Origin: Rozella allomycis CSF55
Lineage: Eukaryota; Rozellomycota
Length of the DNA stretch: 64,000 nucleotides
Reading direction: 5' to 3'
Assembly (NCBI GenBank): GCA_000442015.1
Contig: KE561054.1
Span: 85,535-149,534 of the forward strand
Part shown: positions 1 through 64,000 of the stretch, piece by piece
Numbering within the stretch: the stretch's first letter is position 1
Layout: every line of letters starts with the position of its first letter
Notes under the pieces: generated by a model
The model's input: only the letters and a program-made list of their open reading frames with translations
The model's database searches: none
Told to the model about the DNA's origin: nothing
Made by a program: the position numbers and the translations under genes

Positions 1-983
1 CAAAATTTTATTGCGTAGCTTAATGTTTTCATAGTCGTCGCTGGTTAAATAATAAATTCATTGCTTACGATGTCCCCTTATAAAGCAACCACCAAAATAG
101 ATTCTCTTGACGCCGTGCTGCGTTGCATTTAGATACGCTATTTGGGCAATATTGTTGGAAACCATGTAGAGCAAACTTGCAGCGATATCTTCCTGCTTAA
201 ATGATTTTGATTCTTTTCCTTTTTGAAAAGCTTTCCCAAACGATGATGCAATTGTGGTGGCTTTTAGTCCAATTTTTTCATATCCAGCTCCATAAATGTC
301 GCCCACCAGCATGTCTACATTTCTATGATCTCCTTTTTTCGAAATCTCAATCATCTCATCATAAGTTTTAGCGTCAGTCAAAAGAGATAAAAGACCCCAG
401 AGCGTCCCCCCTCCTAATGCTGTGCCACTAACCCTTTCAAATTTGTTTTCGTCTTCCACCTTAAGAATGCTGACACCTGAACCAATATTAACTAAAAGGT
501 ATGGAAACACGTCTGAATCAGATCCTAATTCCTTAAATTCCATACGATTTTCTTCATCATATGTAAAGACTTCAAAGGGAACCTTGAGAAGCAGAAAGTT
601 CAGTCCACCAATTAGACATTCCATCTCATCTTCTTTTTTTAGATTTATTCCCAGTTGTTCTATGAATAATTGGTTAAACTTGTATGCCCCACCACCTGTT
701 GCAATTATCTCAAAATTTTCTTTCTTCAGCAAACATCGTATATATTCAATACAAGAACTTATATTTTCAGTTTCAAATTTTCTAAAATGCAAACGTCCGC
801 CTAACAAAGATCACAAAAATGCCAACCTTTTTCTTCGTCTGTCGAAAAATACACCAATTTAGCCAGAGATCCTCCAATATCTATAGCTAGATGATTTATA
901 TTCCTTGAATAAAACGGTAGCAATATATCTCTGGTATCTTCTTCATGCTCATCTGTTGAGATAGACGCACCTTTTAGATTCAT
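1..983 (-). CDS. Pantothenate kinase, eukaryotic type II (3' end outside window)
   Basis: Catalyses ATP-dependent phosphorylation of pantothenate, the first step of coenzyme A synthesis. The N-terminal IDIGGSLAKLVYF motif, the central ATGGGAYKF segment, GSGVSILKV and the GTALGGGTLWGL nucleotide-binding stretch are typical of the PanK/Cab1 family. Start is the ATG at 983. Two tiny introns restore the family sequence: 801-826 (26 nt, starts GTTGGC) joins EEK to GGRLHF, and 41-68 (28 nt) joins RGH to a segment like the human RGHQYTMQLLAYAIDFW region. The last few dozen residues lie beyond position 1, so the gene is cut only by the window edge. Family assignment is secure. Confidence 0.93.
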
Positions 984-1274
984 GAAATTTACTTGTAAAC
1001 TTTAAAACGATTGGACATAATAAGTTTAAACGATAAAAAAATAGTGATGTTTTATTTACTACTATGACAGCTGGATGGGTGTTTTTTCAAGTAGTCCATA
1101 CAAATTGGCTGCGATTAGTAAACTATGTTTTTTAAATCCAAATCCAATATATAGTTAGTATAGTTATATAAAAAATATAGTAGATAATATAGTTTGAAAT
1201 ATCAACTTTGGCATGTTACTAAGACAACCTCATAGGTCTAGCCATAAATTCGAGTCTGAATCCTGTTGCTAAGT
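984..1274. other. Intergenic region between divergent genes, no gene seen
   Basis: About 290 bp of AT-rich sequence between the start of pantothenate kinase (minus) and the start of the membrane protein gene (plus). It presumably holds both promoters. I see no ORF with coding character, RNA gene or repeat in it apart from TATA-like runs around 1145-1195. Confidence 0.5.
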
Positions 1275-2099
1275 ATGTTGGTGTTCACGAACTTTGTGTA
1301 TGTTGTTAGCGGGTTTGTCCTAGGCATTGCTTTTGCATGTTCTACTATCTGCGTCGCTGTATCTGTGTATAATCGATCCAGAATCGCTATATTCCATGCA
1401 GCTAGCAGCTTAACCTTCACTTGCAGTTCTATACTTGTCAATTACTATTTAACCAATACTGGCGTTGATTGTTCTGTAAGAGCCCCGATAATAGGGTTCT
1501 TCCATGTTGCCCAAATAATGTTTTTTCAGATTGCGCTATGGTTCAGGGTGAAAGCCTCATTTGTGGTTCCCAATTTTAAAGATGCTCTTTTCAAAAGACA
1601 ACCAGCCGGATTATTTCTGTTATTTCTCCAATTAGTAATTATTACACAGGCTTTACTCCTTACCGTTTTATATGCAACTTCAGGATACATTACAGGAGTG
1701 CTTTGCGGAAATTCCTATAACCTTGCAATATTATATTCTTGCAACTTCGTTTTCATTTTCTACTTGTTTGCTACCAACTTGGCCTTTGCTAAAAGAATCC
1801 ATTCTGCGTATAAGATTTCTCAAAAGAACTCACTTTTCCATCTCATGCTTAACAGCCTTGCACTTCCATTTACAATTTTGTGCTCTGCCATTGTATATAA
1901 CGTCGTGGGCCTCTTGAGCACAGACCAAGTTGTTGTTCGCACATTAACTTGGATAGACGGTTCGATCTATATGTTTAGCCAGGCAATATTCTGCCTTTCT
2001 GATAACTTAACTTCCATGGCTCAAAAAATTGTCAAGAATTCCGGTACAACAAAGAAGGGTAAAGATATTCTAAATAATGAAAGTAGGCACAGAATATAA
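1275..2099 (+). CDS. Polytopic membrane protein of unknown function, about 7 TM
   Basis: An intronless 274-residue frame. Hydropathy by eye shows about seven hydrophobic stretches (near residues 5-28, 38-58, 72-92, 108-132, 147-168, 185-210 and 220-240) and a short basic C-terminal tail (KIVKNSGTTKKGKDIL). I recognise no family motif. The topology resembles seven-helix receptors or fungal integral membrane proteins, but nothing in the sequence decides. The start used is the first ATG in frame, at 1275. It lies between the divergent pantothenate kinase and HUT1, with about 290 bp of AT-rich DNA upstream. Confidence 0.7.
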   Translation: MLVFTNFVYVVSGFVLGIAFACSTICVAVSVYNRSRIAIFHAASSLTFTCSSILVNYYLTNTGVDCSVRAPIIGFFHVAQIMFFQIALWFRVKASFVVPNFKDALFKRQPAGLFLLFLQLVIITQALLLTVLYATSGYITGVLCGNSYNLAILYSCNFVFIFYLFATNLAFAKRIHSAYKISQKNSLFHLMLNSLALPFTILCSAIVYNVVGLLSTDQVVVRTLTWIDGSIYMFSQAIFCLSDNLTSMAQKIVKNSGTTKKGKDILNNESRHRI

Positions 2100-2351
2100 A
2101 GGTCAATCGGCTTCTCAGAGAGGTGGAGGTAATTTATTCTATTTTAATTAGAAAGGAGAACCAGTCACTTTGAGTCGTAAAATTGAGATTGAAAACTGAA
2201 TGGAAAACCTTCAAAGTTCAAATAAACAAACTTCATATAGATTGGTGTCATTGGCATTTGTTTTATAGAATTATAGAATTTTTACCAAAGATTGAAAAAA
2301 TGCCATCATTTTTTGATTTTTCCAAGTGGCGAAAATCTAAAAATAGGTCAT

Positions 2352-3451: not shown

Positions 3452-4434
3452 ATGACTGTCCCAGATTCAGTAATAGTCCATCCCCTTGTTTTGCTATCCG
3501 CTGTTGATCATTATAATAGAGTAGCACAAAATACAAAGAAACGAGTTGTTGGTGCTCTTCTAGGACAATGGCAAGGAGGTGCTGTTCACATTACAAACTC
3601 ATACGCATGTAATATTATGTATTTATTTATTATAGTGCCATTTGAAGAGGACGAAAAGGATCCTTCTGTTTGGTTTATTGATCACAACTTTCATGAAAAC
3701 ATGTACTCTTTATGTAAAAAGGTGAATGGTAAACTATTTGAATTGTCAAAATGATAGCAAAAGAGAAACCTGTAGGATGGTACCACAGCGGTCCTAAACT
3801 AAGATCAGCAGACCTTAAAATTAATGAGTTATTCAAAAAATACACTCAGGATCCAATTTTGGTTGTCATTGATGTTAAAATGCAAAGCGAAGGACTTCCT
3901 ATAGACTCTTACGTGGCCGTAGATGAAATATCAGATGTAAGTATCGAATTATAACATTGATACTAGGATGGTACATCTACAATAAAAACATTTGCGCATA
4001 TTTCATCTTTTGTAGATGCGGAAGAAGCTGAAGAAATTGGAGTAGAGCATCTTTTAAGAGACATTAAAGATTTGGCGGTGGGCTCCCTTTCTTCCAGGGT
4101 CACTGAGCAAGTTAATTCACTAAAGGGTCTTGTGACTCAAATGCAAGACATTGAAAGATATTTGGAAAAGGTTTTAAATGGACAATTGTCTGTTAATCAC
4201 CCCATTTTGTATAACCTACAAAAGGTATTTAACTTGATGCCAAACACACAATCCCATGATTTAGCCAAGGCCATCACCACCACAGTTAATGACCAATATG
4301 CTGTAACTTACATAGCATCCATGGTTCGTTCAATTACTGCACTCCACGATTTAATTAACAACAAAATTACGAACAAGGAAGATGAAACTAAGAGAGATGA
4401 AGTTGTGGAAAAGAAGACTGAAATGGTGGCTTAA
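3452..4434 (+). CDS. RPN8: 26S proteasome lid subunit RPN8/PSMD7
   Basis: Non-catalytic MPN-domain subunit that pairs with the RPN11 deubiquitinase in the proteasome lid. The N-terminus ([17 protein letters not shown]), [33 protein letters not shown] and the C-terminal VYLASLIRS-like helices match PSMD7. As expected for RPN8 the JAMM zinc ligands are incomplete. Three introns, 3609-3635 (27 nt), 3729-3757 (29 nt) and 3937-3966 (30 nt), restore one 298-residue frame. An ATG at 3410 is also in frame, but conserved sequence begins just after the ATG at 3452. The lysine/glutamate-rich tail is normal for the family. Confidence 0.95.
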
Positions 4435-4466: not shown

Positions 4467-5867
4467 TTAATCCGAATCATAAAACTCTTCGTCTTTCTGA
4501 ATTAATGAGTCTTTCAAACTATATGATTTCCTGTCGTCTGGATGAATTTCTATTTCTGTTTCATGTGAAAAATCACTGGGAACTATGTGCATTTGAACAG
4601 ACGGAGACCCTTGCAAGTATCTGAGATACCCAATGATTTCAGATTTTAGAGAATCGAGGTATTGTCTAGTATTTAAATTGTCAATTCTTGTGGAAGTGTT
4701 AGGATGTAGTTTAAAATCAGGACCGAAAAATTCGTAATAGTCATTGTACGGAAGATCGTTGGAAATCGGTGTGTCAACAAGAATGGAAGTCTCATAAGCC
4801 CAACAACGACTGACATTTTTTATGGTATATCCACCACCTCCTAGTACAAGACTGTTAAATATATGATTAAATGTTACGTAGGAATTTTAAATGACTTTAC
4901 AAACTGTACACATTCGCCATGCCCTTTCAAGCTAAGATTGAAACACCCCAGTCGATCGCATCCTAGAGAATCTGCGCCACATTGAAGGACGATTGCCGTT
5001 GGCTGAAAGTTTTCGATTACTGCTTGGACAATCGGCTTAAAAATGTAAGCATATCCAGCATCATCAATACCGTTCTTTAATGGGACATTCAATGAATACA
5101 TCTTTCCCTTCTCAACACCTACTTCAGATATGTCTCCAGTTCCTTTCAAAGTAGAATAAACATAGTACCTGGGAAAAATCCATCTCCATGCTTGTGAAAA
5201 GACAATGTCATTACTCGATCGGTAGTGTAGAACGCCTCCTGTACCCCATCTCCATGATGTACATCAATATCAATATAAAGAACCCTGGAGTGATATCTTC
5301 GCTATGACATTTCAAAGAGGTTTACTTTAAAAGTTCCAAAATCGCGAGCACTATGTCATTGACATAACAAAACCCTGAAGCTTCAAATTTTTTGGCGTGA
5401 TGCAAACTATTGTCAAAACTCATTCACTTTTTACCCTCCTGACCAATTAACTGCCACATCGCATTGTCCGTGAATTAACTTGTGAACTCCCTCGAGTGAT
5501 CCACCGGAATATATACTGCAAAATTCATGCATACCAGGAAATACTGGACAATCTTCACCCATATTAAACCGCTTGAGTACGCTTGAAAAAGTATTCACGT
5601 TCTCTGGCGTGACTCTTCGGTTAAACTGATATTGCAAATGTACCTTTTTAAAAAATCTATGTAATCTGCATCATGAAATTCAAGTAGTTCTATATCTGTA
5701 GCTTTTCGCGGCCTATATACATGCATCTTTTTATGTAGACCATAATGTAGCACTAAATTGTGTGTCAACGCCAGCCTATGTGGTTTCATGGGATGACCAA
5801 CGCCATAGTGAAAATTCCCAACTTCCTCGTTGTAAAAATATGCTATTTTGTCTTTAGAATGCTGCAT
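4467..5867 (-). CDS. Class I histone deacetylase (HDAC3/Hos2 type)
   Basis: Zinc-dependent lysine deacetylase of chromatin complexes. The protein starts [15 protein letters not shown] and contains [15 protein letters not shown], the active-site histidine pair in GLHHAKK, zinc ligands in DIDVHHGDG and in the QCGADSLG segment, the catalytic-rim GGGGYT, and a phenylalanine-rich DCPVFPG region, all in family order over 420 residues. HDAC3-like similarity is strongest. Five introns (29, 28, 29, 26, 26 nt; the last is 4852-4877) are needed, and the total is an exact multiple of three. The acidic C-terminus ending FYDSD is typical. It is divergent from the WD40 gene with about 42 bp between starts. 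Confidence 0.95.
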
Positions 5868-5909: not shown

Positions 5910-7356
5910 ATGTCAATATCCTCTTCTACAGCTAGTGTTGTTGATGTATATGATGACCTTCCTGCAAGCGAGCAAAATACTCAGGTAGTTTTTGTCTATA
6001 TGTGGCAAAGAATTATGAAATAACTATAAAGGAATGCATCGATCAATGTCTAGATATACAAGGTATTTGTTGGGACAACGAACAGATATCACGTGAAGAA
6101 TTCCGGAGACACAGGTATAATGGCTTGATAATGACCCTGCAGGAGCAAAAGTTATAGAAATATGAGGTGTACAGAGAATGTCATATTCGATTACTTTGAA
6201 TATACCAAGAGTTTAAATAATAATTATTTTTCATTTCACAGAACCTGCTTGAACCAAAAAACAACTTTCCTCCACTATCAATTACGTAATCTAATTGCAA
6301 CCACGTCTAAAAATCGCTTAATTTATTCTGGTAATCATTTTGTGTTGTTATGTATCGAAATGACTAACGTCATCGAATGGAATCCTGTGACTAGAGAATC
6401 CAGAATCCTTTTTGACACACAACAAAGTCAAATGTCATCAATGATGAGAATATGCTCCCTGACAAGCAAAGGAAAATATATAGTTATTGGAGGTAGTTAA
6501 TCTAATCAATGTGTAAAGGCTATCAAGGAGAAATACTGGTCTGGGATAACTCGGATCTAAAAGTATATTCTCTATCATCAGAACCTGCCGCAATATTTAC
6601 ACATTTTCAATTTTCAAATTTGAGAGGTATAAAAGTGTATACCCACCAATAGATAACATTGTAGTCGCAAGTAACAATGATTCCTTTGTGAGATGGTTCG
6701 ACATTTTTATGGGAACTACATCTCTAGCTATAAAGATGCCTTGGAGTGTTAATGTATTCCTGATATTTTATATTTAAAATAAAGGCTTCAGCGTTGTCTG
6801 ATTCAGAGACATCAATTGCCTGTGTCGGCGACAGCTGCGACTGTGTAATATATGACAGCCGAAATGGAAAAAGTATAAATATTTGATTTTATCGATAAGT
6901 TTCTAATACTTTATACGGTCATAGTGATTTTTGTTTTGCTATTGACTGGTCACCTTGCGGCAAATTTGTTGCTACAGGATCTCAAGATTGCACCGCTCGG
7001 TAAAGCTGATTTGTTTCAATTAAGAGAATTTATGATCTAAGAATGGCTAATAAATGCATTAATGTTATGAAAGGAAATATAAGTGGTTTCCGAAACATAA
7101 AATTTAGTCCGGATGGGAAATATATTGCAATGTGTGAAACGGCAGATTATGTTCATCTTTATGATACTAACGATAAATTCTCCAATGGCCAAATTATAGA
7201 CTTTTTCGGTAACATTTTCATTTTGTAGAACCAGGTGAAATAACCGGATTTGATTGGAGCCGAAATTCAGATTCATTCTTCATTGGATGCTACGATAGCG
7301 ATTACGGCGGAATTATTGAATTTCAAAAAAGTAGAAATGGCATACCAATAATTTGA
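5910..7356 (+). CDS. WD40 protein of the fungal C2A9.03 / plant transducin-like family
   Basis: A 409-residue protein split by eight introns (26-31 nt). Spliced similarity is to uncharacterised WD-repeat proteins such as S. pombe C2A9.03: the [14 protein letters not shown] box, [53 protein letters not shown] and [12 protein letters not shown] follow the family order. At least four WD repeats are visible in the C-terminal two thirds. The N-terminal SRxxFRRHR segment matches the family's conserved basic motif. Molecular role is unknown in the family. The frame closes exactly when all eight introns are removed. Confidence 0.85.
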
Positions 7357-7378: not shown

Positions 7379-8433
7379 TTACATAAATCGTTTTCCCACT
7401 TCATAGGAACTTATCATGATCGCGCAAGCAGGTGCAACTTTCCCCACTCTCGCAGTGACACCCTTGAAAAGTCCGCGATATCCTTCCTCTTTAAAAATGT
7501 GACATAGCGCCTTTGTTACAGAATACCTAGCATTCTCTATGCTATCTAACAATAATGGGCAAAAATCGTACTTTTAGTTTCGATTTGCCGCCTGGTCTTG
7601 GCTACGTCGAATGGTGTGGTTAAAACCGCCGCGATCATTCCAGACGTAGCACCCGCAATAAAAGAAATTATCATTTCTTCCGTAACTTTCGTGTCAAGCT
7701 TTCGAATATAAAGCTTTTTTATTTTCGCTTTAGTATTCTCGTATGAAAGCCAGTAGATTGCTATATATCCAACAACATTTAGTTACCTGAAAAGGGAACA
7801 TCTCGCCAAAGGGTTGGTGACAGTCCTTTCCATAGTGTACCCAACCCGTTTAAAGAAACAGATTGCTTTATATCTATGATTATACTTTTAATGGTTGTAT
7901 TTTTCGTTGAGGCCTGGGCCCTGGTTCGAATCAATTCTATTGGGGATATAAATGAAGCAGCTATTGCTGGATAGTATAGATTATATATATTACTTCTTGC
8001 CAGAGCTCCCGAATAAAGAGGAGCCATTGGTGAATCCATTGTTACTTGAGAAAACCAGCCCTTTAAATGCTCATATCCGACGTAATAAACAACAGTTGCA
8101 GGAACTGACATGACCAAAGTAGGGGAGAGTCCTCTCCATAAACTAGTAAATCCTTCTTGTTTCACTATTTTCTTTATGCCGTCAAGAGTCCCTTTATAGC
8201 CATTGGTGGCCATAAGAGGTCTAACAGTATCATGGAAGTCATTAGCGAAAATAAAAGTAGATTTCTGTACAGAAATATTATTTGACACTTGAGCTTGAAG
8301 TCTGACTTTCACCACATCCATGGGAGTAACTATTTATGAGTCAAAACACAAATTTACCCAGCAAAGAAGTTAGAAATGCACCTATACCTGCTGAAATCGC
8401 CTTTTGTTTGTCTGATAATGTTTCTGAAGTCAT
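7379..8433 (-). CDS. MTM1: Mitochondrial carrier, MTM1/SLC25A39-40 type
   Basis: Inner-membrane carrier; animal members import glutathione and yeast Mtm1 affects manganese and iron handling. Three carrier repeats show the signature motifs VTPMDVVKVRLQ, SPIELIRTRAQ and TPFDVAKTRRQ. The SLWRGLSPTLVMSVPATVVYY segment is characteristic of this subgroup. Four introns: 28 nt near the start (before PMDVVK), a 27-nt one that is stop-free and in frame (ends inside the ALARTIAA region), and two of 26 nt. The 315-residue frame closes exactly. The start at 8433 gives MTSETLSDKQKAISAGIGAF, the expected first helix. Confidence 0.9.
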
Positions 8434-8497: not shown

Positions 8498-9957
8498 ATG
8501 TTTTCTTGCCATATTTGCTCACGTTTAATTAGCGATAGATCCTCTTATTATACGTTTACGAAAACGCTTCTTTTAGGAGACAGATTCTTTAGATATTTTT
8601 GTGGAGACTGTCATTCAGGAGAAGAGATTTTATATAGATTAAAGCTATCATGGTAGCCATAAATAATCTTTAAGTTAGGCTAGAAGCTGTTTTGTTGGCT
8701 CTGTGGAATTTGAATCGGCTCCAAGAATGTAACCTCTTTATCGCTGACCAAAAGCAAGCTATTCATTTTATTTATATGCTAGGTACTATCATTCTGATCA
8801 AATATGTGAATTTATCGATAAAAATGAGCATAAATTTTGGGTTAATGGTTGTATATAATGCTTTTTGTCATCAAGGCAGCCAAGAATTCGTCAGTGATAA
8901 AGGACACTGTGGTGAAGACATTAGAAGAATTTGAGTTTAAATATTTTTTATCTAGTCGCACTACATCATTAAAGCGTAATTATAGTAAGTTGTGCACAAT
9001 AGACGGGTTATGGACTTTAGCAAATATGAATTGTCTGGACGAGATCCTCGCTGCCGAAAAAGATACCGCTTTTGTTGTTTTACCAACTGGAGTTCTAGTT
9101 GATCCAATTAATTATAACGGGCAGGTATACGTGTATAACATGAATCATCGCAGAGCACAGTCGCTAAAAAGCTTAGCAGACGCGAAATTCTTAGCAAAAC
9201 ATACTCAAATTATGATTTCGATCGGCCTAATCCGTCAGGCAATGAGGTTCTGATGTGTCCACTAGCATCTCATTCAGCTCCTCAAATTTTGTTTGAACCA
9301 AATGGAAAAACGATTTCGAATAAAAAGGTAGATATCTCAGCACGCAACAAAAGGGCTATTGTGTAGCCAAATCGACTCATGGGTTTGATTATGGCGATTT
9401 AGTTTATGAAGTCCATTTGCCTGTTGATTTTCAAGGGCACGTTAGAATAGGATGGTCGCATATTCTAGGGGATCCCCAAGCCGGGGTAGGATATGATGAA
9501 TATGGATATTCAATCCGAGATAAAGATGGTCGTGCATTCCATGTTTCTAGATCCAAAGATTATGGCACACCATTCGGTAACTACCTTATCGATGAAATAT
9601 AGGTGCAGGGGACATTTTGGGTTGTGCAATAAAGATGCCGGAATTCGCCCCATCTGAGAAACAAAATTATCTTAAAAGCTCCATAAAATCTGAATGGCCC
9701 CCTTTAAAGGAAGGAATATTCAACGTTGAAATGGATATTTTAGAAAACAGTCATATCGAATTCTTTCTAAATGGAAAAAGCCTTGGCTTAGCATTCGCAC
9801 CAATATACAGAGGTATATGATAAAATTTTCTTGTTTTACAGGAAAGTATTATGCTGCTGCTTCTTTATTTGGTGGAGCCAAAGTAGAAGTAAGGTTCAAT
9901 AACCTGCAATATTCGTACCCTAATTACAAGACATTAGGCAGTGCTTTGCTTGAATAG
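8498..9957 (+). CDS. ASH2: ASH2-like COMPASS histone H3K4 methyltransferase subunit (SPRY)
   Basis: Core subunit of the Set1/COMPASS complex. The N-terminus has an ASH2L-like atypical zinc finger (CHIC ... CGDCHSG) and winged-helix segment (WLEAVLLALWNL, ICEFIDKNE), followed by the SPRY domain (GYCVAKSTHG, RIGWSHILGDPQAGVGYDEYGYS, GAGDILGC). Seven introns (26-29 nt) are required; one, 8754-8782, begins with GC instead of GT. Removing them gives 421 residues. The start is uncertain: ATGs at 8336 and 8432 are in the same frame, but 8336 lies antisense to the first exon of the MTM1 carrier, and 8432 shares its CATG with that gene's start. I prefer 8498, just before the zinc finger. Confidence 0.87.
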
Positions 9958-16970: not shown

Positions 16971-19111
16971 TTATTTACCATTTCTTACACTGCATAATTC
17001 GAATGACCCTGGGTATTTATTCAATATTTCTATCCAGTGACATTGGGTATTGGAAAGTTTATCGTTTTGACTTTTAACTTCCACAAACATGCATTTGGAC
17101 TCTAATTTGGGTTTCTTCCTAGAAAAGGACTCTTCTTCCGAGCTATAAGACAAATCTATAATTTGCGATTCTGAGCTATTCTTCGATTTCCAAAATACTT
17201 CATAAATGTCATCATCTGTATCCCTCCAGAGTGTTAAGTCCGGAAAACCACCAATAGACCCCTTATAGTCCTTGGCCAATTCATCGCAAATACTAGTGAG
17301 AAGGTTTAGATTAATGGCCTTATTTATAACCGAATTACAGAATTACTTTCAAAAAGCATTCTATATCATTTCTTGTCAAATGCTTCCAATTAATTCCCAC
17401 AATTTCTTTGTTCTGGTAAGTATCATAATTTTTATTAAATATTGATATCGACTGATGCTTATCTTTTAATTCAACAAGTCTGTTTTCGATTAAATTTATT
17501 CTGTTATAGTAAAAACTGTCTGTCCCAAAATCAATTGGTGCATCTAACAAATATAAGACGCGTCATATTTACTTTGATATGGGTGAATGAAAACATCTAA
17601 AACAGGACAAAATATAATATCGGCAAAGATAATTCCAAAAATAAGACTTAAAATTCTACCCTCACTGTGAAAAGCCTTCCAACCATCCAGTTGATAATGC
17701 TGAGATATGGCGCCAAGATATTCTTTACTTGAATTGCCAATTCTTCAACATTACATGGATTTCCATCTAATCCACAAAATATCAACCTTGTAGAGGCGGT
17801 ATTTTTCGCGAGAATCTTGCCTGTAATTGTTTTAATGGTATATTCTAGAATGGGCCTTTGATTCTTTTTATACGCCTTATTATAATATTTATTTTTAATG
17901 GCATATCTATCCCCGTTACGAACAAAGTGATCTTTAGAGGCTAATAATGAAACTTTAATTATCGATGAGTCCATTTTTATGTACTCTATCCACCATTTCC
18001 CGCGTCGACCGAGGCAATATTTCACTTGATTTAACAGTTCTTTGAGAATAAATTTGCTATCTTGGTTTTTAATATTAAGCGCCATAATTTCGAGTATCCT
18101 ACAAATCTGCCAACCTTGGATAATTTCAATATTAAGATCTTACCAGGACAAAATCGTCTTTTGAAATAATCATTTTTGGCTAAAACTAAGGCATTTGAAT
18201 ATGAATCCTGATTTGAAGTTTTGTCAAACGAATTAATTCTATCATAAAAGCATATGATTTTTACCGAAATTTGGGCTCTACAAAGGTTTCTTTAAAGTAT
18301 GAAAGAAATTTGGCAATATCCGATTTAATTTCTTTAGCCTTTTCCTTTATGTTATCGTCAAAATCAATTTGACTATCTTTTGTAATTAATTCATTGTATA
18401 GATATTCCTTTACATTGTAGTAAAGGTGAAAATTCTCTAGAGCATTCTTGCTCTTGAAAAATGAATTTCCGCTTATTTCATAGTTAACATAATTTTGTCT
18501 TCCAATGTTTGAAAGAATAATAGTGCTAAATGTTTCACGAGAATTACCAAAAAACGCAAAGCACATGTAATCAATCCATTCTCGAACTTTAACGCAAAGT
18601 GAAAATGCTTTTCCTGTTATTTTACCTTGAATCTCTATTAATATTTCTTTGGTTATATTTTGTTTAACTAAATCTCTTAGGTCATTCTTTTTCTAATATC
18701 CTCATCAAAAGTCATTTACTTTTTCCTTTGGTTTGGTTTCCAATATTTCATTGCATATTTGTGATAAATCATCATTAGTTAATTTGTCGATGAAGGAATC
18801 AACATCCTCGTAAGCTAGTTGTTAGTGACTTTAAAGTGATTACTTTGACAGAGGTTGTGAGAAACGAGAGCATCTACACCAGAGCTTATGTCATGTATCT
18901 CATCGTATTTTAATTTATTTGTGAATAGAATAGACTGTTGCCGCTGATATGCTCGTAGTAGTAATCGTTGTTCGTCTGTCTCAAGTCTTTTATATAAGCC
19001 CATTAAATCTTGATGCGATTGTTTGAAAATGTGAATATTTTTGATAGCAAACTCAAGAACAACAAGAAATGATCTTTCGTAATAGGTTAACTGACGTTGT
19101 AATTCCTCCAT
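16971..19111 (-). CDS. FAN1: FAN1-type structure-specific nuclease (Fanconi-associated nuclease 1)
   Basis: Interstrand-crosslink repair nuclease. The spliced 647-residue protein starts MEELQRQLTYYERSFLVVLE and ends in a VRR-NUC domain: the GGFPDLTLW motif and CMFVEVKSQNDKLSNTQ (Asp, Glu-x-Lys metal-binding core) followed by WIEIL. Upstream are the YLSYFxx, RRGKWW, EELAIQHYQLDGWKAFHSEG and PIDFGTDSFYYNR blocks of FAN1. Seven introns of 26-29 nt are needed. There is no obvious UBZ zinc finger at the N-terminus, as in fungal and bacterial homologues. Its 5' end faces the Dicer gene. Confidence 0.9.
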
Positions 19112-19417: not shown

Positions 19418-19421
19418 ATGA
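19386..19421 (+). promoter_or_regulatory. uORF overlapping the Dicer start as ATGA
   Basis: ATG at 19386 opens an 11-codon frame (MAQSSTSHKLK) whose stop TGA at 19419-19421 overlaps the Dicer ATG at 19418-19420. If the transcript starts upstream, translation of Dicer would need leaky scanning or reinitiation. Confidence 0.5.
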
Positions 19422-23393: not shown

Positions 23394-23464
23394 ACTTTTA
23401 ATTTTTTATGAGTTAACAATTAATGTGACAATGTAATTAAATATTGACACGCTTTTTTGAATGA

Positions 23465-26051
23465 ATGTTTGAAAGTTATCTCGTAGTCAAAGAGGACCAA
23501 AATTGCGTATTTCAGTATTTTGAGAAATCGATGGATTCTACCGAGTTCAAGTCGAGGACACTTAGAAGAAACACAAACACAAGTAAATTTATATTTTGGC
23601 TAAAATATGTGTTTTCATTTAGTCACCCAGCATATGAATACCTTTTTAAGCTTATTGACAATAACAGAACTGGTAACAAATAAATAGCAACATTTTAAAA
23701 TAGGTATTTATATTTGAAGCGTTTATACTTTAGGAATTATAAAGGGCGAACAAATTTTGAGTCTGTGGCAAAAAACAAGTGTGCCTCAGAATATGTTATC
23801 ACAGATTTGGGCCTTATGTGATTTTGATAATAAAGGCAGCCTTGATAAACCTGGATTTGACTTGTCGTGCAAATTAATTGGATTAGCGCAGCATCAAAAG
23901 AACTTGGATATACACAGTTTGGGTAAACTTCACTTCAATCAAAAATAGAGCTATTTATACCAATTTTTGAAGGAGTACAAATCCCTGACAATGTGATTCC
24001 TGTCGATGTTCCAATCTCTGTCGAAGAGATTTCAAATTATTCCAAAATGTTTAATTCTTCAAATCCAGTCAATGCAAGGCTTGATAGTAATAGTATTAAT
24101 TTATTTTAAAAGGTTCTATTTGTAAATCCATTTTTGTACGGTCTGGATTGAAGTTTGATGTATTGGGTAGAATTTGGTAATTTTGTAAAGGTTATACGAA
24201 AGGGCCCTGGTGGATGTCGACAAAAAGAATAGCCTAAATGAAAAAGAATTTGTGTGTGCAATGATAATTATTTCACGTTTATTGGATGGATCTTTAAAAC
24301 AAGTTCCTACTGTTTTACCCATTTCATTAAAAAACCTACCATCAGCTCAAACGCAAGTTAAGGGCATCATTCCCATTGTACCACCTCCTGATCGCATGAA
24401 ATATGAAAGCTTTTTTAATAAACTAGACAAGGATAATGTCGGAGTTATCAAAGGTGATGAGGTTGTTGAATTTATGAAACAATCCAAATTGCCTTCATCC
24501 ACACTGGCTTCTATTTGGTAATTTCTTTGATTAATGCTTGACAGGAATCTAGCAGATGTCACGAAAGATAACGCTTTAGATAAAGAAGAATTTATTACTG
24601 CAATGTTTTATATACAGCAAATACTTTTAGGAAAGGATGTTCCCGGCATTTCTCTTCAAGTGCCAGCGGTGCCATCCAAGCCTTTAGCCATCCCTACAGC
24701 GCAGACCCCAACACTCAACACCACACCTTCAGCATTATCTGATTCAAGCATTGACACTTTGAAAAATCAAATAAAAGACATAAATTATAAAGCCGGTTTA
24801 AAGGAGGCTGAATTATATGATTTACAAAATTTAACTGAATCAAATGACAAGGAATTTATAAAATTGATGAAGCTAAAAGAAGACGCAGAAAATTCACTCA
24901 TAAAAGCTACACAAGAATTGGAAATTCAACAGGCAAAACAAAAGGAATATGCAGCCAAAAGGGAATTGGTCCTTCAACAAATTCACTCTTTGCAACATCA
25001 ATTAAATGAAGCAACGGCAACGATTGAGGCTATAAAAGCTGAGAAAAATGAATTATTTGATAAATCCCTGATAGAAGAAGCTTTGATTGCAGAATTGAAG
25101 GCAAAGAATGAGACCCTGGTTAAAGAAATTGAGGACTTAAAGAACGAAAAAGAAAACTGGATGAAAAAGTCCAAAGAAAATGAAATTCAGGCAAATAAAT
25201 TAAAAGATGAGAACAATTTGCTTGGCAAACAGAAAGAAGAATTGCTTGACCAAATAAAGTTAAGCCACTCAATTTCCCCCACTGATCAGACGGGGGCGCT
25301 TACTTCAGATCCGTTTGATTCGTTCTCTGAGACTTTCAAAATAAATAAATCGGCGCCCAAAAAAGACGAATTTTTCGATTTCGGGGTCACGTTTGATAGC
25401 CCTACTATTAAAGGGGAAGGCCCTGTTGAGATTACAGACAACAAAATAGACACTGATGTTTCCAAGTCCCCAAAAATTGATGATTTTGACGACGCTTTCA
25501 AAGATTTTAAAGGAGATGCGACCGTTATTGTGGACTCTCCTCCAGTCCATAATGAAGTTTCCTTAGATAAGGCATTTGATGCCTTTAATCCATTTAGCGA
25601 GCAAAAAATTAGTAATGAAAATACAGTAGCAGAGTTTGATTCAACTTTATTCTTTTCTCAAGGCCAACATTCAAATTTCGAAAATCCATTCTCTGATAAT
25701 CCCTTTGGTACTGACTTTGACCCTTTTCATTTCAATGAGACAAATAGTTCAAATCCAAAAGTCACTAATGCTGATCCATTCATTAATACAAACGGCGTTT
25801 TAACAGCATTTCCAATCGAATCATCAGTGGCGAACAAGCTGGAATCTCCAAATACCCTGGAAAATTCAGTTTTGGATAAAAATACAACGGAATTAGTAAA
25901 TATGGGATTTAGTAAAGATCAAGCTATTGATGCTCTGAAACGCTATGACAACAGTCTTCTGAGGGCTACCACTTTTCTTCTAGACAACGCTAGTCCCGAT
26001 TCTACAAAAACTTCTCAATGGGCTGACTTTTCTAATCCTTTCGATAATTAA
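23465..26051 (+). CDS. EDE1: EDE1/Eps15-like endocytic scaffold (3 EH domains, coiled coil, UBA)
   Basis: Early clathrin-endocytosis scaffold, 806 residues. EH1 (HPAYEYLFKLIDNNRTG ... LSQIWALCDFDNKGSLD), EH2 (FDVLGRIWALVDVDKKNSLNE) and EH3 (FFNKLDKDNVGVIKG ... SIWNLADVTKDNALD) each show EF-hand-like loops. A Lys/Glu-rich coiled coil spans about residues 360-560, then a linker with repeated DPF/NPF-like motifs (SDPFDSF, ENPFSDNPFG, FDPFHF) for AP2 binding, and a C-terminal UBA (ELVNMGFSKDQAIDALK). Five introns; the first is the unusual 61-nt one at 23673-23733. Those in EH2 and EH3 interrupt the same IW codon. The N-terminal 50 residues before EH1 are uncertain. Confidence 0.87.
23673..23733 (+). 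other. 61-nt composite intron made of two minimal introns back to back
   Basis: In EH1 of the EDE1-like gene, 23673-23703 (31 nt, GTAACA...TAG) and 23704-23733 (30 nt, GTATTT...TAG) abut at an AG/GT junction with no exon between. Removing all 61 nt joins NRTG to IIKGEQ in frame. Removing only one leaves a stop or frameshift. Confidence 0.75.
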
Positions 26052-26153: not shown

Positions 26154-27422
26154 ATGTCTTCATTCACCATAGAAAATATTGGCGGCATCACTTTTAAGGT
26201 GCCCGCCAGATATAGATTGATTTCAAGAATCGGACAAGGTGCATATGGCTATGTCGTGTAATTTATTCCAATCTTTTTAAATAGTAACGGTTATGATCAA
26301 ACAGCACATTCTTATGTTGCTATCAAAAAGTTGTCAAATATTACAACTAGCATAAACGACCTTAAAAGAATATACCGAGAATTGGAAATTATTAAACAGC
26401 TAAATCATGAAAATGTAACAATATATCACAACTTTTACGTGTCAGATACTTAAAGTAGACGCAGCATTTGTATCGGAAAGTTACGCCAGTTTTGAAGATA
26501 TATATCTAGTTTCTGAATTGATGGATATGGATCTACATCAATTAATTTCCTCCAAGCAAAATTTATCTTATGATCATTGTATTTTTATATCTTATCAGAT
26601 TGCCCGGGCATTGAAATACTTGCACTCAGCAAATATCATTCACAGAGATTTAAAACCTTCGAATATATTAATCAACATGAATTGTGACGTAAAGGTATGG
26701 TTCCTACTAGTAGTTTAATAGCTGGGTGATTTTGGTCTTGCTAGGGACTTAAATGTACATTTAAATCAAGATGATAAACAACAAATGTCTGGATACATAG
26801 CCACAAGGTGGTATAGAGCACCTGAAATAATATTTCAGGTGAAAAAGTATACAACCGCGAGTATGTTCATGATTTGACTTTTGTATAGTTGATATATTTT
26901 CTTTTGGGTGTATTATGTTTGAAATATTTACTGGCACTCCGCTAATGCCAGGTCGAACTAGTACGATTTTTCATTTAAACGGACAGCTATGCATCAAATA
27001 AAATTAATGATTCAAACATTGGGATCTCAAGATTTAGAAATATTCCGCACAGCTGAAAATCAAGATGTACGGATGTATATTACAAATTGATCACAGATAT
27101 TTAAAGTTGCTGCAAGCTTTTGTAATAATAAAGAAGAGCCTGGAATGAATAAACTTTTATTGTCTCTTCCTTTACATGCCAGAAACGTTATCAAAGGATG
27201 CCTAGAATTGAATCCGGACAAGCGATTTGATTCCAATGCGCTCATCAAGAACCCTTTCTTTCAAGTATTTCATGATCCAAATGATGAGGTAAATGTATAT
27301 TGATCAAGTTTTAGCCTTCCTGCGCCAATTATAAAATTTCTTCGGATATTCCAAATGATGTTACTAGATATGACATGAAGAGTAAGGTTATAGACTATTT
27401 TGACAAAAGGCCGCGTTTATAA
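26154..27422 (+). CDS. MAP kinase, p38/Hog1-like, with SGY activation motif
   Basis: Serine/threonine MAP kinase of 357 residues from eight exons (introns 27, 31, 27, 28, 26, 30, 26 nt). Visible: glycine loop [23 protein letters not shown], catalytic [30 protein letters not shown] and a CD-like tail after HDPNDEP. The activation segment reads [14 protein letters not shown], so the TxY dual-phosphorylation motif is S-G-Y (26788-26796). The single Gly between the two sites suggests the TGY (p38/Hog1) branch. The usual DIWSxGC is DIFSFGC. Confidence 0.9.
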
Positions 27423-27460: not shown

Positions 27461-28228
27461 ATGATCAGACCAGCTTCTTCTATCGTTACCGTTTTTGTTG
27501 ACTGTGAGAACTCATCTTCTGAAAGGAGATTCGATAGATCAATCACTATATTTGAATTAAAGGTTGAATACTCGTTGTTTCTCATATAGGGTAAGCTAGA
27601 ACCGATTACTGGCATACCTCTGTCATCTATGCATGTAACGTTGGTTACTTCAACAAATAAAAATGGTCTTCCGTTGTTAAATGAAGAAGCTTACCTAGGG
27701 GCATATCCAGTAGAAGATTATTCAAAGCTTCAAGTCATTGATCTTAACCCGGACAGGATTAAGGGCTCTTTTACTGATACGTCTCAAGTTAAAAAATTTG
27801 AAATAACAGATGAAGAGTATTCGAAGAGAACTGATTCTGTAAGAGCCTTTAAAGAAAGAAACAAATTGGGGCGTTTTGCTGAACCTACAGAAGAGACTGT
27901 AAAAATTCAAGCAGAATATAAGAAACTTGCAATGGAAATTCAAATTGGAAATAGATGCGAGGTGGACTCTGAAGGAATATTAAAACGAGGCACAATTAAG
28001 TTTGTGGGCGAAACAGAGTTTAAACCAGGTGTTTGGGTTGGGATTGAGTTTGATGAGCCCGTTGGGAAACATGATGGATCGTAATTATTTATTTTTTTAC
28101 AGAAAAGTGTTCAAGGCATCGCATATTTTGCGGCGAAGAAAAACCACGGCGCGTTTGTGAGACCAACAAATGTCAAAGTAGGGGATTTTCCAGAAAAAGA
28201 TATTTTTGAAGAATTAGAAGAATTGTAA
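27461..28228 (+). CDS. TBCB: Tubulin-folding cofactor B (Alp11/TBCB), UBL plus CAP-Gly
   Basis: Alpha-tubulin folding factor, 237 residues. A ubiquitin-like N-terminus (VTVFVDCENSSSERRFDRSI ... AYLGAYPVEDYSKLQVID) leads through FEITDEEYSKRTDSVRAFKE to a CAP-Gly domain (RGTIKFVGETEFKPGVWVGI, GKHDGS) and an acidic EEL terminus. Two 27-nt introns; the first starts GTTGAA and joins FELK to GKLEP. An ATG at 27629 is in frame, but using it would cut away half of the UBL, so the ATG at 27461 is taken. It starts 38 bp after the MAPK stop. Confidence 0.92.
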
Positions 28229-33285: not shown

Positions 33286-34791
<1,506 letters not shown>

Positions 34792-40689: not shown

Positions 40690-42212
40690 TTATTTCTTTT
40701 TGGGTGCGGTCACGTTAAATTTAAAGTAAATGATGTCTCCATCTTCTATCACATGATCCTTGCCTTTTTGGAGATACTTTCCAGCAGCTTTGACTTGAGC
40801 TTCTGATCCTAAATCCTTCAAGTCTTGATATTTCATGATTTCAGCCATAATAAATCCCCTTTCGAAATCAGTATGAATAACCCCTGCTGCCTGAGGCGCC
40901 TTGGTTCCTTTTCTTATTGTCCATGCGCGAACTTCATCTGCTCCTGCAGTGAAAAAATAGATTAGTTGCAAAGAAGAATACCCGGTTACAATAATCCTAT
41001 ATTACAATCGAAATTCTAAAATATACTTTGGAAGGGCGCTTGTAGTGTTTAATTCTTTCAAATATTGCTCTTTTTCGTCTGGAGTGGACTGTGAGAGTAA
41101 AAGCTCCAAGGAACAAGAAAAGGGAATCAAAGTATCGCCAGGGGTGTTTTCGTCAATCCATTGTTTAATTTTAGGCAACCAAATATGTGACTATAATTAA
41201 AAATCTTACCATTTGTTCTTTTTACGAGCATAGTCAGTTTCAGAGATATTGGCCAAATAAGTTACAGTCTTTGCAGTGAGAAGCAAAAGGGAATTGATAA
41301 TGTCAATTTCCTTGCCATTCCAGTCACCGTGACGAACGTCTTTTTTCTCTTCGCTGACCCATTTATAAACCAATAATTTATTAATTGAAATTAAAATTAC
41401 TTTTTCCACGGTTTCTAGCTCAAAGACCTTTTCTTTGTTTTTTTCCTGACCACGAATGCCCTTTTTGAGCGATTCATATTTATTTTTTAAAAATTCTTCA
41501 TCTTTCAGTCGAAGTTCTTCATGAATGATGCTGAGGTCACGAACAGGGTCAACTTCTCCTTCGACATGAACGACATTTGGCTCTGAGAAAGCCCTCACTA
41601 CATGGAATATACCGTCCACAGCACGAATCTAGTAATTAATAAAAAAAACTTGATCCTACATTGGACAAAAAGGCATTTCCAAGACCCGCTCCACTGGCAG
41701 CACCCTTAACCAGTCCAGCGATGTCGATGACCGTCAAGTAAGCAGGAACCTAAAATTATGAATATGTGCAATTACTTTTGACGCTGGCTTATACGTGTCA
41801 CAAAGCCAATCAAATCTTGCATCAGGAACTGCAACTCTACTCTCCTCCGGATCTATCAATAATATATTGTAAATATAATACCTATTGTACAAAATGGGTA
41901 ATTCTCAGCGGCAACAGCAGAGTTTGTAAGAGCATTAAAAAACGATGATTTACAATTACCAGCAACAAATGATACTTACCCAACATTTGGCAATCCTACT
42001 ATGCCTATTTTCAAGTTATTTGATGGTCGCCCTAATAAAGGCTTTTCAGGCGTGGTTGATGTCTTCTTTACCATTTTTTTACTTGCGAAGCCACGCTCTC
42101 CTTGGATGAAAACCAGTTTGCGAATACGAGATCGAAAAGGTTTGGGCAGAATTGACGTTGAGAAACTGGAGTTTGACCCTTTCGAAGCTAATGAAACTAT
42201 TGGTGAAAACAT
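40690..42212 (-). CDS. OLA1: Obg-like ATPase OLA1/YchF, with N-terminal extension
   Basis: Ribosome-associated P-loop ATPase, 449 residues as annotated. [20 protein letters not shown] (P-loop), [44 protein letters not shown], and a TGS domain ([29 protein letters not shown]) match OLA1. Six introns; two, 41953-41979 inside the P-loop and 41180-41209 at the KKNKW tryptophan, must end in TG, not AG, to keep this highly conserved protein. The ATG at 42212 adds 46 residues of Ser/Arg-rich, presequence-like sequence before the usual start, [16 protein letters not shown]. Either start could be used. Confidence 0.93.
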
Positions 42213-42680: not shown

Positions 42681-43198
42681 ATGGTATGAATTTGAACTTT
42701 TCGTGTTTTATTATTCTTATATGTTTCGAATAGATATAATAATTACAGAATTTAATTTCTAGGTTTATAATCGCTTTATTGAAGTTGGCCGTGTAGTCCT
42801 TGTTAACTATGGTCCAGATGCTGGAAAACTTGCTGTTATCAGCGAAATTATTGATCATAACAGAGTAAGCGCAATTATTAAGTAAAATACAGGCTATTGT
42901 CGATGGTCCAACTACCGGTGTTGCACGTCAACAATTATCTTTTCGCCGACTTGCTGTTACACCATTTAAAGTTTCAGTTCCACGTGGAAGTCGTTCAAAG
43001 ACAATCAAAAAAGTTTTTGAAGCTGAAAAAATCGCTGAAAAATGGGAAACCACTTCCTGGGCAAAGAAATTAGCCGTTAGAGAAAAGAGAGCAGCCATGT
43101 CTGACTTTGATCGTTTCAAGGCTATGTTACTCAAGAAGCAACGCCGCGCTGTTGTTGGAAAGGAATATGGAAAATTGAAAAAAGCTGCCAAATTATAA
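42681..43198 (+). CDS. RPL14: Ribosomal protein eL14
   Basis: Large-subunit protein of 136 residues: [60 protein letters not shown]. The ATG is separated from the rest by a 79-nt intron (42684-42762, GTATGA...CTAG), the longest in the window; a second intron is 42865-42892 (28 nt). An intron directly after the start codon of a ribosomal protein gene is a common pattern in intron-poor fungi and microsporidia. Confidence 0.94.
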
Positions 43199-53553: not shown

Positions 53554-53626
53554 GGGCTCATAGCTCAGTTGGTAGAGCGCACGCTTTGCATGTGTGAGGC
53601 CCCGAGTTCAAACCTCGGTGAGTCCA
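53554..53626 (+). tRNA. tRNA-Ala (anticodon TGC)
   Basis: Cloverleaf folds fully: acceptor GGGCTCA pairs with TGAGTCC including the G3-U70 wobble that marks alanine tRNAs, D-arm GCTCAGTTGGTAGAGC, anticodon loop TTTGCAT (anticodon TGC), T-arm CCGAGTTCAAACCTCGG, discriminator A. No intron. The internal A box (TAGCTCAGTTGGTAGAG) and B box (GAGTTCAAACCTC) are present. Confidence 0.98.
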
Positions 53627-57381: not shown

Positions 57382-58025
57382 TCAACCAATCATGCTTCGC
57401 TTCCTTCCCCGCAATCTTACTTCTTCCAACTTTATTACTATGCTCTCTGGGTTTGAAACCTTTTTAAAATAACTGGAGATAATTGTTTCAAAAAAGTCTT
57501 TGTCGTTAGGATGAGAGCTATCGAATGCGCGTTCAAGAACGTAAAGGTCTACAGCCTTGTCTTCGGCCAAGGAAGATATATATCCCAATCCAAAATCGAT
57601 GAAGACCTATTTGAATATTATTGTGATTTTACAATTTCATTGGAAGAATTTTCTACCAATATATTTGAAGTGGTTAAGTCACCGTGAATTATGTCACAAG
57701 AATGTAACTTTGCAATAGATTCTCCAATGCTTTCAGCTAAATATGCATGACTGCTTATACACGATTTAAGTGGCCTCCCAGAAATATGTTCCATTGCTAA
57801 TATACTTTCCTGTGTATCAACCCAGTACAAAACAGGTGTTCTTACGTCACATGACGCAGCCTTGACTAATAGCTTTGCCTCCTGTGATAATCTTGACTTT
57901 GTAATGTTTTGATCTAAAATATGATGTCTATAATTTTTAGATTCTCTCTTCTTTAATATTATCTTATCGAAATTCTTGAAACTTTGAGTAAAAGTCGACG
58001 CTTCAGCACCTTGGGAAATCAGCAT
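57382..58025 (-). CDS. BUD32: BUD32/TP53RK kinase of the KEOPS complex
   Basis: Small atypical kinase/ATPase required for tRNA t6A37 synthesis. 205 residues: ISQGAEASTF (Gly-loop substitute), LSQEAKLLVKA, LAMEHISG, HGDLTTSNILV (catalytic loop), VFIDFGLGYIS (DFG) and C-terminal VRLRGRKRSMIG, the Bud32 signature. One 26-nt intron just before the DFG strand. The start lies only 16 bp from the divergent RPC9 start. Confidence 0.94.
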
Positions 58026-58041: not shown

Positions 58042-58440
58042 ATGAAAATTCTACATGATCGGGTAGTGTTTCTTTCAGATGCCGAGGTTTATGATCATTT
58101 GAAATACGTTAGTAAAACTAAATGTTCTGTTGTATATGAAGTAATTTCTTATGACTGGGATTTTAGACACAAATGTTTTTTGAAAAATGTAATATTGAAG
58201 TCACAAGGCTCTCTAAAGAGAAAATTTTAAGAATAAATGAAACCTTGAAAGCTTTCAACTTAACGCCTGCAGAAAAACTTCAAATATTTAACATGTTGCC
58301 AACATCTATGGTTGAATTGATATGCGTAATAATATTCCAGTAATTTCAATAAGATTATAGAAGAATGCGAAGAACGCTTCCAGCCCAATGATTTACAGGA
58401 AATAATCGACGCTATTACTGAGGTCAAAAATGTTGAATAA
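58042..58440 (+). CDS. RPC9: RNA polymerase III subunit RPC9/CRCP (Rpc17)
   Basis: 114 residues from three exons (introns 26 and 28 nt). MKILHDRVVFLSDAEVYDHL followed by VVYE, then LKAFNLTPAEKLQIFNMLPT and SMVELI-CIIEECEERF match the RPC9/RPC17 HRDC-like fold. Partner of RPC25 in the Pol III stalk. Divergent from BUD32 with 16 bp between start codons. Confidence 0.88.
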
Positions 58441-61415: not shown

Positions 61416-61638
61416 TTTGCGGTTTGCCGTTTTGCACTTTTCATTTTTTGGTATAGTCAAATAAATTAGAACTCTGGTGACCGAATCCAATTTGTAGTTT
61501 TAACAATTTACTAATTTCAGCGTTATTTCGTTATAACTTCAACTCCCAAGTATGCACTTCGTATACTCTCGTTAAACTTCTATACATTAATAATAAAAAT
61601 AATTATCAGTAAATTTGGATTTAATATTAAATTTGTTT

Positions 61639-62444: not shown

Positions 62445-62496
62445 ATTTTATCAAAATAAATTTTTTTCCATTTATTAACAAAATGTGATTCGTCAG

Positions 62497-63159
62497 TTAC
62501 AAATTTACCTTAAAACTATTTAAGGGTTTAGCCAATTTAGGATCGGTTTTAATATTCTCTGGAATTCTACAAACAAACTCTTTATCTAATGTAAAGGAAT
62601 ATGAATCCTTTATCCATTTTAGTGGTGAGAGGAATGAAAGCGTGGTGTTAATGTTAAAATGTACAGTTTTGGATTTTGAGCATGCTATCAGCAATTCGTC
62701 TACCAATTGTTTGTGCTCAAATTCTTGTGAGTAAAACAATTGCATTCGGCAATCCATATTTATCTTTTCACTACTTCTTCGTTTAAAACGTGGCGATTTT
62801 GTCATGCAATAGCCTAAAGGGAGTATTTTATAATTAACCTAATCGATAAAATGAATATTTTTTACGTCAAGTTGCATTTCTTTTAATTCTACATCTACTT
62901 CATAAGGACTTTCAGCAATTAAATTCAATGAAGCCTCTGCCGTGATGTTAAAACGAAAATTTGGTTTTTTTGTTACAAGTTCATGAATAATATAATTTTG
63001 AAATTTAACATGGCCGATTTTTACTTTTGGGATTTGAAAGTTGAATAACGACAAGAAAGCCAACGAAAATCCTATGATCAGCAAGCCAAAAACACCGAAA
63101 ATGAAAAACAAAATGGTAGACACTCCACAAAGAGGTCGCTTTTTCCCCACTTTGGACAT
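62497..63159 (-). CDS. Membrane-anchored LEA2-like protein B
   Basis: 211 residues, one 27-nt intron. MSKVGKKRPLCGVSTILFFI begins it, with a TM helix (ILFFIFGVFGLLIIGFSLAF) and a beta-rich domain (NFRFNITAEASLNLIAESPY, EVDVELKEM), consistent with LEA2/WHy-type repeats. Its frame is open up to 63207 but lacks an ATG there, so more N-terminal sequence on a further exon is possible. Stop lies 52 bp from the stop of protein A. Confidence 0.58.
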
Positions 63160-63217
63160 GCCAGCCACAATTTTGAAGGCATTTATTTTATGGACAGAAG
63201 CCAGCAAGTTCTCCTAA

Positions 63218-64000
63218 ATGTATAACATTTTATTAATGTAAATATAGCAAGTAGATAAATGGCTTCATGAAAATAACATTTTGCTGAATGTCAGCTGCCT
63301 TGAAGAAGCCAATGAACTGTACCGGTTTTCAAAGATTAACCACTTTGCAGAGGAAAAATCAAAAATGGCTATTGAATTCTACGATATTCTATCCCGATCT
63401 TTAGAACACCAAAGTACATGTGTTAAATGATTGTGTGACCAGAACATTTGGATTCTCAAATTCTCGATAGTCTACCATTAGAAAGATTTTTAACGGCCAA
63501 GGCGGATAAAATTTTGCATATTCTTATTGATATTTCTGTGTCATTGCAGTTGGAAGAACTGGAACTTAATGACATGATTATTGGCATAACAAAACTAATC
63601 AACGAGGAGTCACGATTGCGAAAAATTTGTGATGAACAAAAAATTATGCGGATGGATGTCAAAGAAATTGCTGAAAAAAGAATGCAATCCTCAAAAAATA
63701 AACAGTACAGTAAAACATTGATTAATAATGATATACTGCCCAAATGAGCGAAAATACATCCAAAGAGATTCAGAAGTCTTTAGAATGGACTCACTGGAAT
63801 TCCATAATGAATGCAAAGAGAGAAGAATACAAAAACAGACTACAAGAACTCTCTACTATATACAATGGCTCAGATGTTGAGGAACAAGAGCTACGATATC
63901 CCTTGATGCAAAGATTAGTTCATAATTTTGAAAATTTCGAGAAAATGCACCGAGAAAAACAGTCAGAGCTTATGGCGGTTAAAGACCTTCCCCCGGTAAA
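63218..64000 (+). CDS. HAUS1: HAUS1-like augmin subunit (3' end outside window)
   Basis: Coiled-coil subunit of the augmin complex, which branches spindle microtubules. Spliced sequence resembles HAUS1: an N-terminal ENN ... LEEANELYRF segment, EEKSKMAIEFYDILSRSLEH, ILHILIDISVSLQLEELELN, and the C-terminal LEWTHWNSIMNAKREEYKNR ... LMAVKDLPP. A 29-nt GT-AG intron (63414-63442 region) and a 29-nt GT-TG intron (63710-63738) are needed. A 24-nt GT-TG intron (63238-63261) would give the ATG at 63218, but this 5' end is unsure. The apparent ATGA stop/start overlap at 63744 is not two genes. Confidence 0.62.

What the first reader, a model, noticed from the sequence alone, without database searches (positions are those of the whole stretch)
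1..64000. Genome-wide minimal introns of 24-32 nt, about 145 in one window
By hand-splicing conserved genes I needed about 145 introns; all but two are 23-32 nt with a mode at 26-29. In every fully modelled gene without an N in its exons the spliced length is divisible by three. Such a tight, tiny distribution is near the physical limit for spliceosomal introns and is known mainly from ciliates, nucleomorphs, Blastocystis and some microsporidia. In a fungal-type genome with several introns per kb it would be notable: intron size is minimised but number is not.
Basis: partly seen in the sequence, partly recalled or inferred. Interest (0 to 1): 0.85.

Follow-up and report, generated by a model that had tools for sequence, protein, structure and literature searches.

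The report
Tiny fixed-spacing introns in Rozella
The genes of Rozella allomycis, an early-branching fungal parasite related to microsporidia, are cut by very many introns only 26 to 32 bases long, and a likely branch-point A tends to sit 22 bases from the intron's start, which suggests how so small an intron is measured and spliced.

Summary
Confirmed. The window is Rozella allomycis CSF55. A gene model given a flat intron-length prior (12-150 nt) and only GT..AG puts 102 of 391 introns at 26-29 nt, against 9-29 for eight decoy signal pairs. The final model has 129 introns in the window: 119 are 26-32 nt, ten are other sizes. Of 43 introns inside Pfam matches, in the 19 of 42 intron-bearing gene models scanned, 42 are 26-31 nt. 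U1, U2, U5 and U6 RNAs, SF1 and a U2AF65-like gene were found.

Beyond the finding: an adenosine at position 23, counted from the 5' end, is enriched (311 of 447 introns in a model blind to that position). AG is rare between it and the 3' splice site (4/408, against 243/7152 upstream). I infer a branch point 22 nt from the 5' splice site and use of the first usable AG 2-8 nt further on, which would explain the sharp lower limit of 26. The 5' anchoring is firm for 26-29 nt, not for longer introns. Human splicing needs about 50 nt (PMC6692369). Two public Rozella proteins checked contain some of these introns and miss others. No RNA data were available. Verdict: real, a new variant of a known kind.

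The parts
1..64000. Whole window: 129 predicted introns, 119 of them 26-32 nt, in 48 gene models; full coordinate list. The entries below are those inside a Pfam match or shared with a public gene model.
3609..3635 (+). 27-nt intron, Rpn8/PSMD7
   Evidence: unbroken alignment to solved Rpn8
3729..3757 (+). 29-nt intron, Rpn8/PSMD7
3937..3966 (+). 30-nt intron, Rpn8/PSMD7, outside the Pfam matches but inside the structure alignment
4852..4877 (-). 26-nt intron, histone deacetylase
5143..5168 (-). 26-nt intron, histone deacetylase
7000..7026 (+). 27-nt intron, WD40 protein
7546..7571 (-). 26-nt intron, mitochondrial carrier
9577..9602 (+). 26-nt intron, SPRY protein
17319..17346 (-). 28-nt intron inside VRR_NUC of FAN1-like gene
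18693..18719 (-). 27-nt intron of FAN1-like gene; public model P0121 uses the same 5' site but a 3' site 6 nt later (33 nt)
18815..18843 (-). 29-nt intron of FAN1-like gene, shared with public model P0121
24087..24112 (+). 26-nt intron, EH-domain protein
24177..24202 (+). 26-nt intron, EH-domain protein
24518..24544 (+). 27-nt intron, EH-domain protein
26258..26284 (+). 27-nt intron, protein kinase
26415..26445 (+). 31-nt intron, protein kinase
26695..26721 (+). 27-nt intron, protein kinase
26861..26888 (+). 28-nt intron, protein kinase
26961..26986 (+). 26-nt intron, protein kinase
27067..27096 (+). 30-nt intron, protein kinase
27563..27589 (+). 27-nt intron, ubiquitin-like/CAP-Gly protein (in the model; the model starts this gene downstream)
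28081..28107 (+). 27-nt intron, CAP-Gly protein
28409..28437 (-). 29-nt intron, WD40 (striatin-like) protein
29670..29696 (-). 27-nt intron, striatin-like protein
30089..30114 (-). 26-nt intron, Ras-family GTPase
30343..30370 (-). 28-nt intron, Ras-family GTPase
30419..30444 (-). 26-nt intron, Ras-family GTPase
32349..32374 (-). 26-nt intron, Sin1-like CRIM protein
32447..32473 (-). 27-nt intron, CRIM protein
32715..32740 (-). 26-nt intron, CRIM protein
34017..34043 (+). 27-nt intron, protein kinase with C-terminal extension
34168..34198 (+). 31-nt intron, same kinase
34289..34317 (+). 29-nt intron, same kinase
34426..34452 (+). 27-nt intron, same kinase
35122..35149 (-). 28-nt intron, short-chain dehydrogenase
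35291..35321 (-). 31-nt intron, short-chain dehydrogenase
35376..35404 (-). 29-nt intron, short-chain dehydrogenase
36391..36417 (+). 27-nt intron of the EF-hand NADH dehydrogenase, also in public model P0001
36850..36876 (+). 27-nt intron of the EF-hand NADH dehydrogenase, also in public model P0001
37877..37902 (+). 26-nt intron, COX4
41629..41659 (-). 31-nt intron, Ola1/YchF GTPase
41750..41775 (-). 26-nt intron, Ola1/YchF GTPase
42865..42892 (+). 28-nt intron, ribosomal protein L14
56536..56561 (-). 26-nt intron, pyridine-nucleotide oxidoreductase
57607..57632 (-). 26-nt intron, RIO-like kinase
58141..58166 (+). 26-nt intron, Rpb4-like
58326..58353 (+). 28-nt intron, Rpb4-like

Best explanation
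These are U2-type spliceosomal introns of Rozella allomycis that have shrunk to near their minimum size while staying numerous. The 5' splice site is GTA(A). The branch point is most likely the adenosine at intron position 23, 22 nt from the first G, in a weak T-N-A context. The 3' splice site is the first AG that starts at position 25 or later. Because the 5' splice site to branch point spacing is nearly fixed and AG follows within 2-8 nt, lengths pile up at 26-29 with a hard lower edge at 26. Shown here: the introns, their lengths, the position-23 A, the AG avoidance, and the presence of U1, U2, U5 and U6 RNAs, SF1, a U2AF65-like gene, Cwc25 and Isy1. Inferred: that A23 is the branch point, that AG choice follows it by scanning, and that the spacing is set by spliceosome geometry.
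For: Length peak under a flat prior, with decoys. 43 introns inside Pfam matches, 42 of them 26-31 nt, GTA in 40 of 42, A23 in 32 of 42. Rpn8 aligns to solved Rpn8 without a break across the spliced junctions. A23 in the model, which did not score that 5' position: 117/135, 62/100, 60/93, 52/75 and 11/22 for 26-30 nt, against 0.32-0.33 at positions 8-19; in the motif-free first pass: 32/36, 17/27, 9/16, 14/21 and 4/8. In the model's 28-29-nt introns (n=168) the 5'-anchored window 21-23 gives 59.9 nats, the best 3'-anchored window 35.3 and the best of 500 shuffles 15.9; 0 of 500 bootstraps favour 3' anchoring, and 8 of 500 for 28-33 nt (n=212). AG at positions 25-31 before the real one: 4/408, against 243/7152 at 6-21 (p=0.004), with no depletion at 23-24 (37/759). 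Genome-wide pattern counts 698 against 116 when 2 nt shorter. U2, U6, U5 and U1 found at 139.2, 88.5, 83.1 and 69 bits; U1 5' end AACUUACCUGG, U2 GUGUAGUAUCUGUUC, U6 ACAGAGA.
Against: No RNA or lariat data. In the model 136 of 447 mini-introns lack A at 23. The signal is weaker at 30 nt (11/22, p=0.07) and absent as such at 31-33 nt (9/22). For 29-32 nt alone, 221 of 500 bootstraps favour 3' anchoring, and the motif-free first pass has too few introns to decide (n=37 at 28-29 nt; 88 of 500 favour 3' anchoring, 287 of 500 for 28-33). In that first pass A23 alone is not significant at 28 (p=0.07) or 30 nt (p=0.24). A free-position motif search finds only a weak TT(A/G)A motif, about twofold enriched at the expected place (24 of 212). 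In 26- and 27-nt introns A23 falls at -4/-5, which the acceptor matrix also scored. The model scores positions 21 and 23, so (355 of 497) is partly circular. AG avoidance rests on few cases and on model-chosen acceptors; at 18687-18719 the public model uses a later AG than mine. U1 is 0.5 bit under the Rfam cut-off. U2AF65 was matched exon by exon and stays under the TIGR01642 cut-off.
Confidence: 0.8

Rival explanations
1. The introns are real and minimal, but A23 is not the branch point; it reflects another constraint such as the 3' splice-site context or AT-rich composition, and the branch point is unspecified, as reported for Paramecium and the Bigelowiella nucleomorph.
For: The motif is weak and 136 of 447 introns lack A23; 5' anchoring is not established above 29 nt. 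Three lineages with the shortest introns are reported to show no branch-point signature (PMC2483917 passages).
Against: The signal is anchored to the 5' end in 28-29-nt introns and peaks at 23 at each of 26, 27, 28 and 29 nt. AG avoidance begins just after it.
Confidence: 0.28
2. The apparent introns are sequencing or assembly indels that break reading frames.
For: The assembly has scattered single Ns (4 in the window), and at least one long predicted intron hides a missed exon.
Against: Strong excess only for GT..AG among nine signal pairs (GT-AG plus eight decoys) and only at 26-29 nt; GTA in 92%; two public Rozella proteins splice three of the same segments.
Confidence: 0.01
3. Length is constrained by translation-coupled surveillance (stop codons in retained introns), as proposed for Paramecium (recalled), rather than by splicing geometry.
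For: Stops lie in 82% of called 27-nt introns (n=102) and 27 of 27 called 30-nt introns, against 59-68% at 26, 28 and 29 nt.
Against: The model misses stop-free 27-nt introns (simulated recall 12/44, against 91/91 with a stop). Corrected by that recall, about 56% of 27-nt introns have a stop (my arithmetic), so no deficit is shown there. The length of 27 is not depleted (116 at 27 nt against 150 at 26 and 97 at 28). The 30-nt class was not corrected.
Confidence: 0.08

Closest known systems
Stentor coeruleus 15-16 nt introns (PMC9505925, passages)
   Same: Narrow tiny length class; weak branch-point sequence but a strongly positioned A; conserved U2 and U6 pairing motifs.
   Different: In Stentor the A moves from position 10 to 11 when the intron grows from 15 to 16 nt, so it keeps its distance to the 3' end; in Rozella it stays at 23 from 26 to 29 nt. 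Stentor Cwc25 lacks the glycine plug; Rozella's predicted one starts MGGGD.
Paramecium introns (median 24-25 nt; PMC12862383, passages)
   Same: High density, about 25 nt, GT..AG.
   Different: No branch-point signature reported for P. tetraurelia (PMC2483917, passages); the stop-free 3n deficit known for Paramecium (recalled, not read) is not shown in Rozella.
Mikrocytid 16-17 nt introns (PMC10245619, passages)
   Same: Parasite with very uniform tiny introns.
   Different: 224 introns in M. mackini; Rozella extrapolates to about 18,000 (452 of 24-32 nt in 244 kb; my arithmetic).
Microsporidian introns (Encephalitozoon cuniculi; PMC2483917, passages)
   Same: Rozella's relatives; short introns, mean 35.8 nt.
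   Different: 13 accepted introns with strong CTAAY branch sites; Rozella has many introns and only a weak T-N-A.
Trichomonas type B introns (23-28 nt; PMC12316389, passages)
   Same: Same size.
   Different: 24 and 52 introns in two species, with a branch site fused to the 3' splice site.
Human short introns and Smu1/RED (PMC6692369, passages)
   Same: The 5' splice site to branch site distance is the limiting parameter.
   Different: In human extract splicing was abolished at 46 nt and the B complex is estimated to need 52; Rozella is inferred at 22.

Membership tests
U2-type spliceosomal introns | GT..AG ends | tested here: met
   Of nine signal pairs tried only GT-AG gives a strong 26-29 nt peak: 102, decoys 9-29
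U2-type spliceosomal introns | Major-spliceosome snRNAs in the genome | tested here: met
   U1, U2, U5, U6 found (U1 0.5 bit under cut-off); U4 not searched
U2-type spliceosomal introns | Branch-point recognition factors | tested here: met
   SF1-HH 76.3 bits, over cut-off; U2AF65-like 126.7 bits, under cut-off, exon by exon; predicted proteins
U2-type spliceosomal introns | Branch adenosine near the 3' end | tested here: inconclusive
   A23 in 311 of 447; chemistry not shown
U2-type spliceosomal introns | Excision seen in RNA | not testable with these tools
   No RNA data held
Minimal-intron lineages (Paramecium, Bigelowiella nucleomorph, dicyemids, as grouped in PMC2483917) | Narrow, very short length class with high intron density | tested here: met
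   24-33 nt in 501 of 551 introns once a duplicated locus is dropped; 2.44 mini-introns per kb of coding sequence
Minimal-intron lineages (Paramecium, Bigelowiella nucleomorph, dicyemids, as grouped in PMC2483917) | No branch-point signature | tested here: not met
   5'-anchored T21-N-A23 in 26-29-nt introns
Microsporidian introns | Strong CTAAY branch motif | tested here: not met
   Best free motif is a weak TT(A/G)A
Paramecium-type stop-codon surveillance | Deficit of stop-free 3n introns | tested here: inconclusive
   No deficit at 27 nt after recall correction; 30 nt uncorrected

The most novel reading that the evidence does not exclude
Rozella's spliceosome uses a fixed 22-nt span from 5' splice site to branch point, less than half the human minimum, with human-like U1, U2 and U6 pairing motifs and an intact Cwc25 N-terminus. 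Intron size is set by that span plus the first AG after it. Since Rozella is placed beside Microsporidia, introns may have been shrunk to this limit before microsporidia lost most of them.
Probability: 0.42. Interest if true: 0.78.

Novelty: new variant of a known kind. Interest (0 to 1): 0.66.

Why it matters
It gives a fungus with a conventional-looking set of spliceosome parts (as far as searched) and very many introns near the size limit, with a measurable rule (a fixed 5' splice site to branch distance) rather than just small size. That makes two questions testable: how a spliceosome fits 22 nt where human extract fails at 46, and whether intron shrinkage preceded intron loss on the way to Microsporidia. 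It also shows that public Rozella proteins can be damaged where mini-introns were missed: the FAN1-like model lacks its nuclease domain.

Tried and rejected
Raw GT..AG pair counts show only a modest bump at 26-29; the first gene model with a poor background gave no clear peak and was replaced. Indel artefact rejected by decoys. Sanchytrids (similar size and GC) were considered and dropped on N50, 12-13 kb; Rozella was then identified by its own protein on a contig of the same length, 149,534. A free-position branch motif search gave only a weak motif; fixed anchoring was more informative. Stop-surveillance was tested and not supported at 27 nt. A microsporidian-style CTAAY was not found. Literature: five answered searches with Rozella among the terms (listings only) and passages of PMC8476143, PMC5701793 and PMC10716661 showed no statement of Rozella nuclear intron length; supplements could not be opened and the 2013 genome paper is not held, so I cannot say it is unpublished. 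Searches were on sanchytrids and tiny introns in general. The 18S search did not complete.

Loci L028 and L031 overlap, so searches count about 2.7 kb twice; dropping L031 removes one intron.
Full report
What it is. The window is G000:C134:85535-149534, the end of a 149,534-base contig in a 9.97-Mb, 213-contig assembly. The top match to the window's EF-hand NADH dehydrogenase is a Rozella allomycis CSF55 protein on a contig of the same length (lineage, phylum Rozellomycota). Window GC of 0.33-0.37 per 4 kb fits the published 34.5% (PMC5701793, passages).

Noticed in passing
window 42684-42762: Predicted 79-nt GT..AG intron directly after the ATG of a ribosomal protein L14 gene, with an in-frame stop just upstream of exon 2; possibly a genuine long intron among the mini-introns.
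   Followed up: partly
window 41953-41979, minus strand: In the Ola1/YchF gene the sequence between the G and K codons of the P-loop reads, by eye, as a 27-nt segment that starts GTAAG, has A at position 23 but ends TTG instead of AG: either a sequence error or a non-AG intron.
   Followed up: partly
window 16971-19111, minus strand: The public FAN1-like model (P0121, 397 aa) lacks the VRR_NUC nuclease domain that the mini-intron model (647 aa) recovers; other Rozella public proteins may be truncated in the same way.
   Followed up: yes
window 35788-37604: The public EF-hand NADH dehydrogenase model P0001 (431 aa) starts later than my model of the gene but uses two 27-nt introns, one of which can be read through without a stop.
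   Followed up: yes
window 19418-23416: A long gene with helicase-like and RNase III-like sequence that reads like a Dicer (by eye, no family search run), suggesting RNA interference in Rozella.
   Followed up: no
window 46675-49181: A hybrid histidine kinase with a response-regulator end and a multi-helix N-terminus that resembles ethylene-receptor-type sensors (recalled resemblance only, no search run).
   Followed up: no
window 53554-53626: tRNA-Ala(TGC), the only tRNA gene ARAGORN found in the window.
   Followed up: no
L011 and L015: Ten-kb stretches that read wholly or mostly N (10000 and 6805 N): withheld stretches or gaps; dropped from all counts from then on.
   Followed up: no
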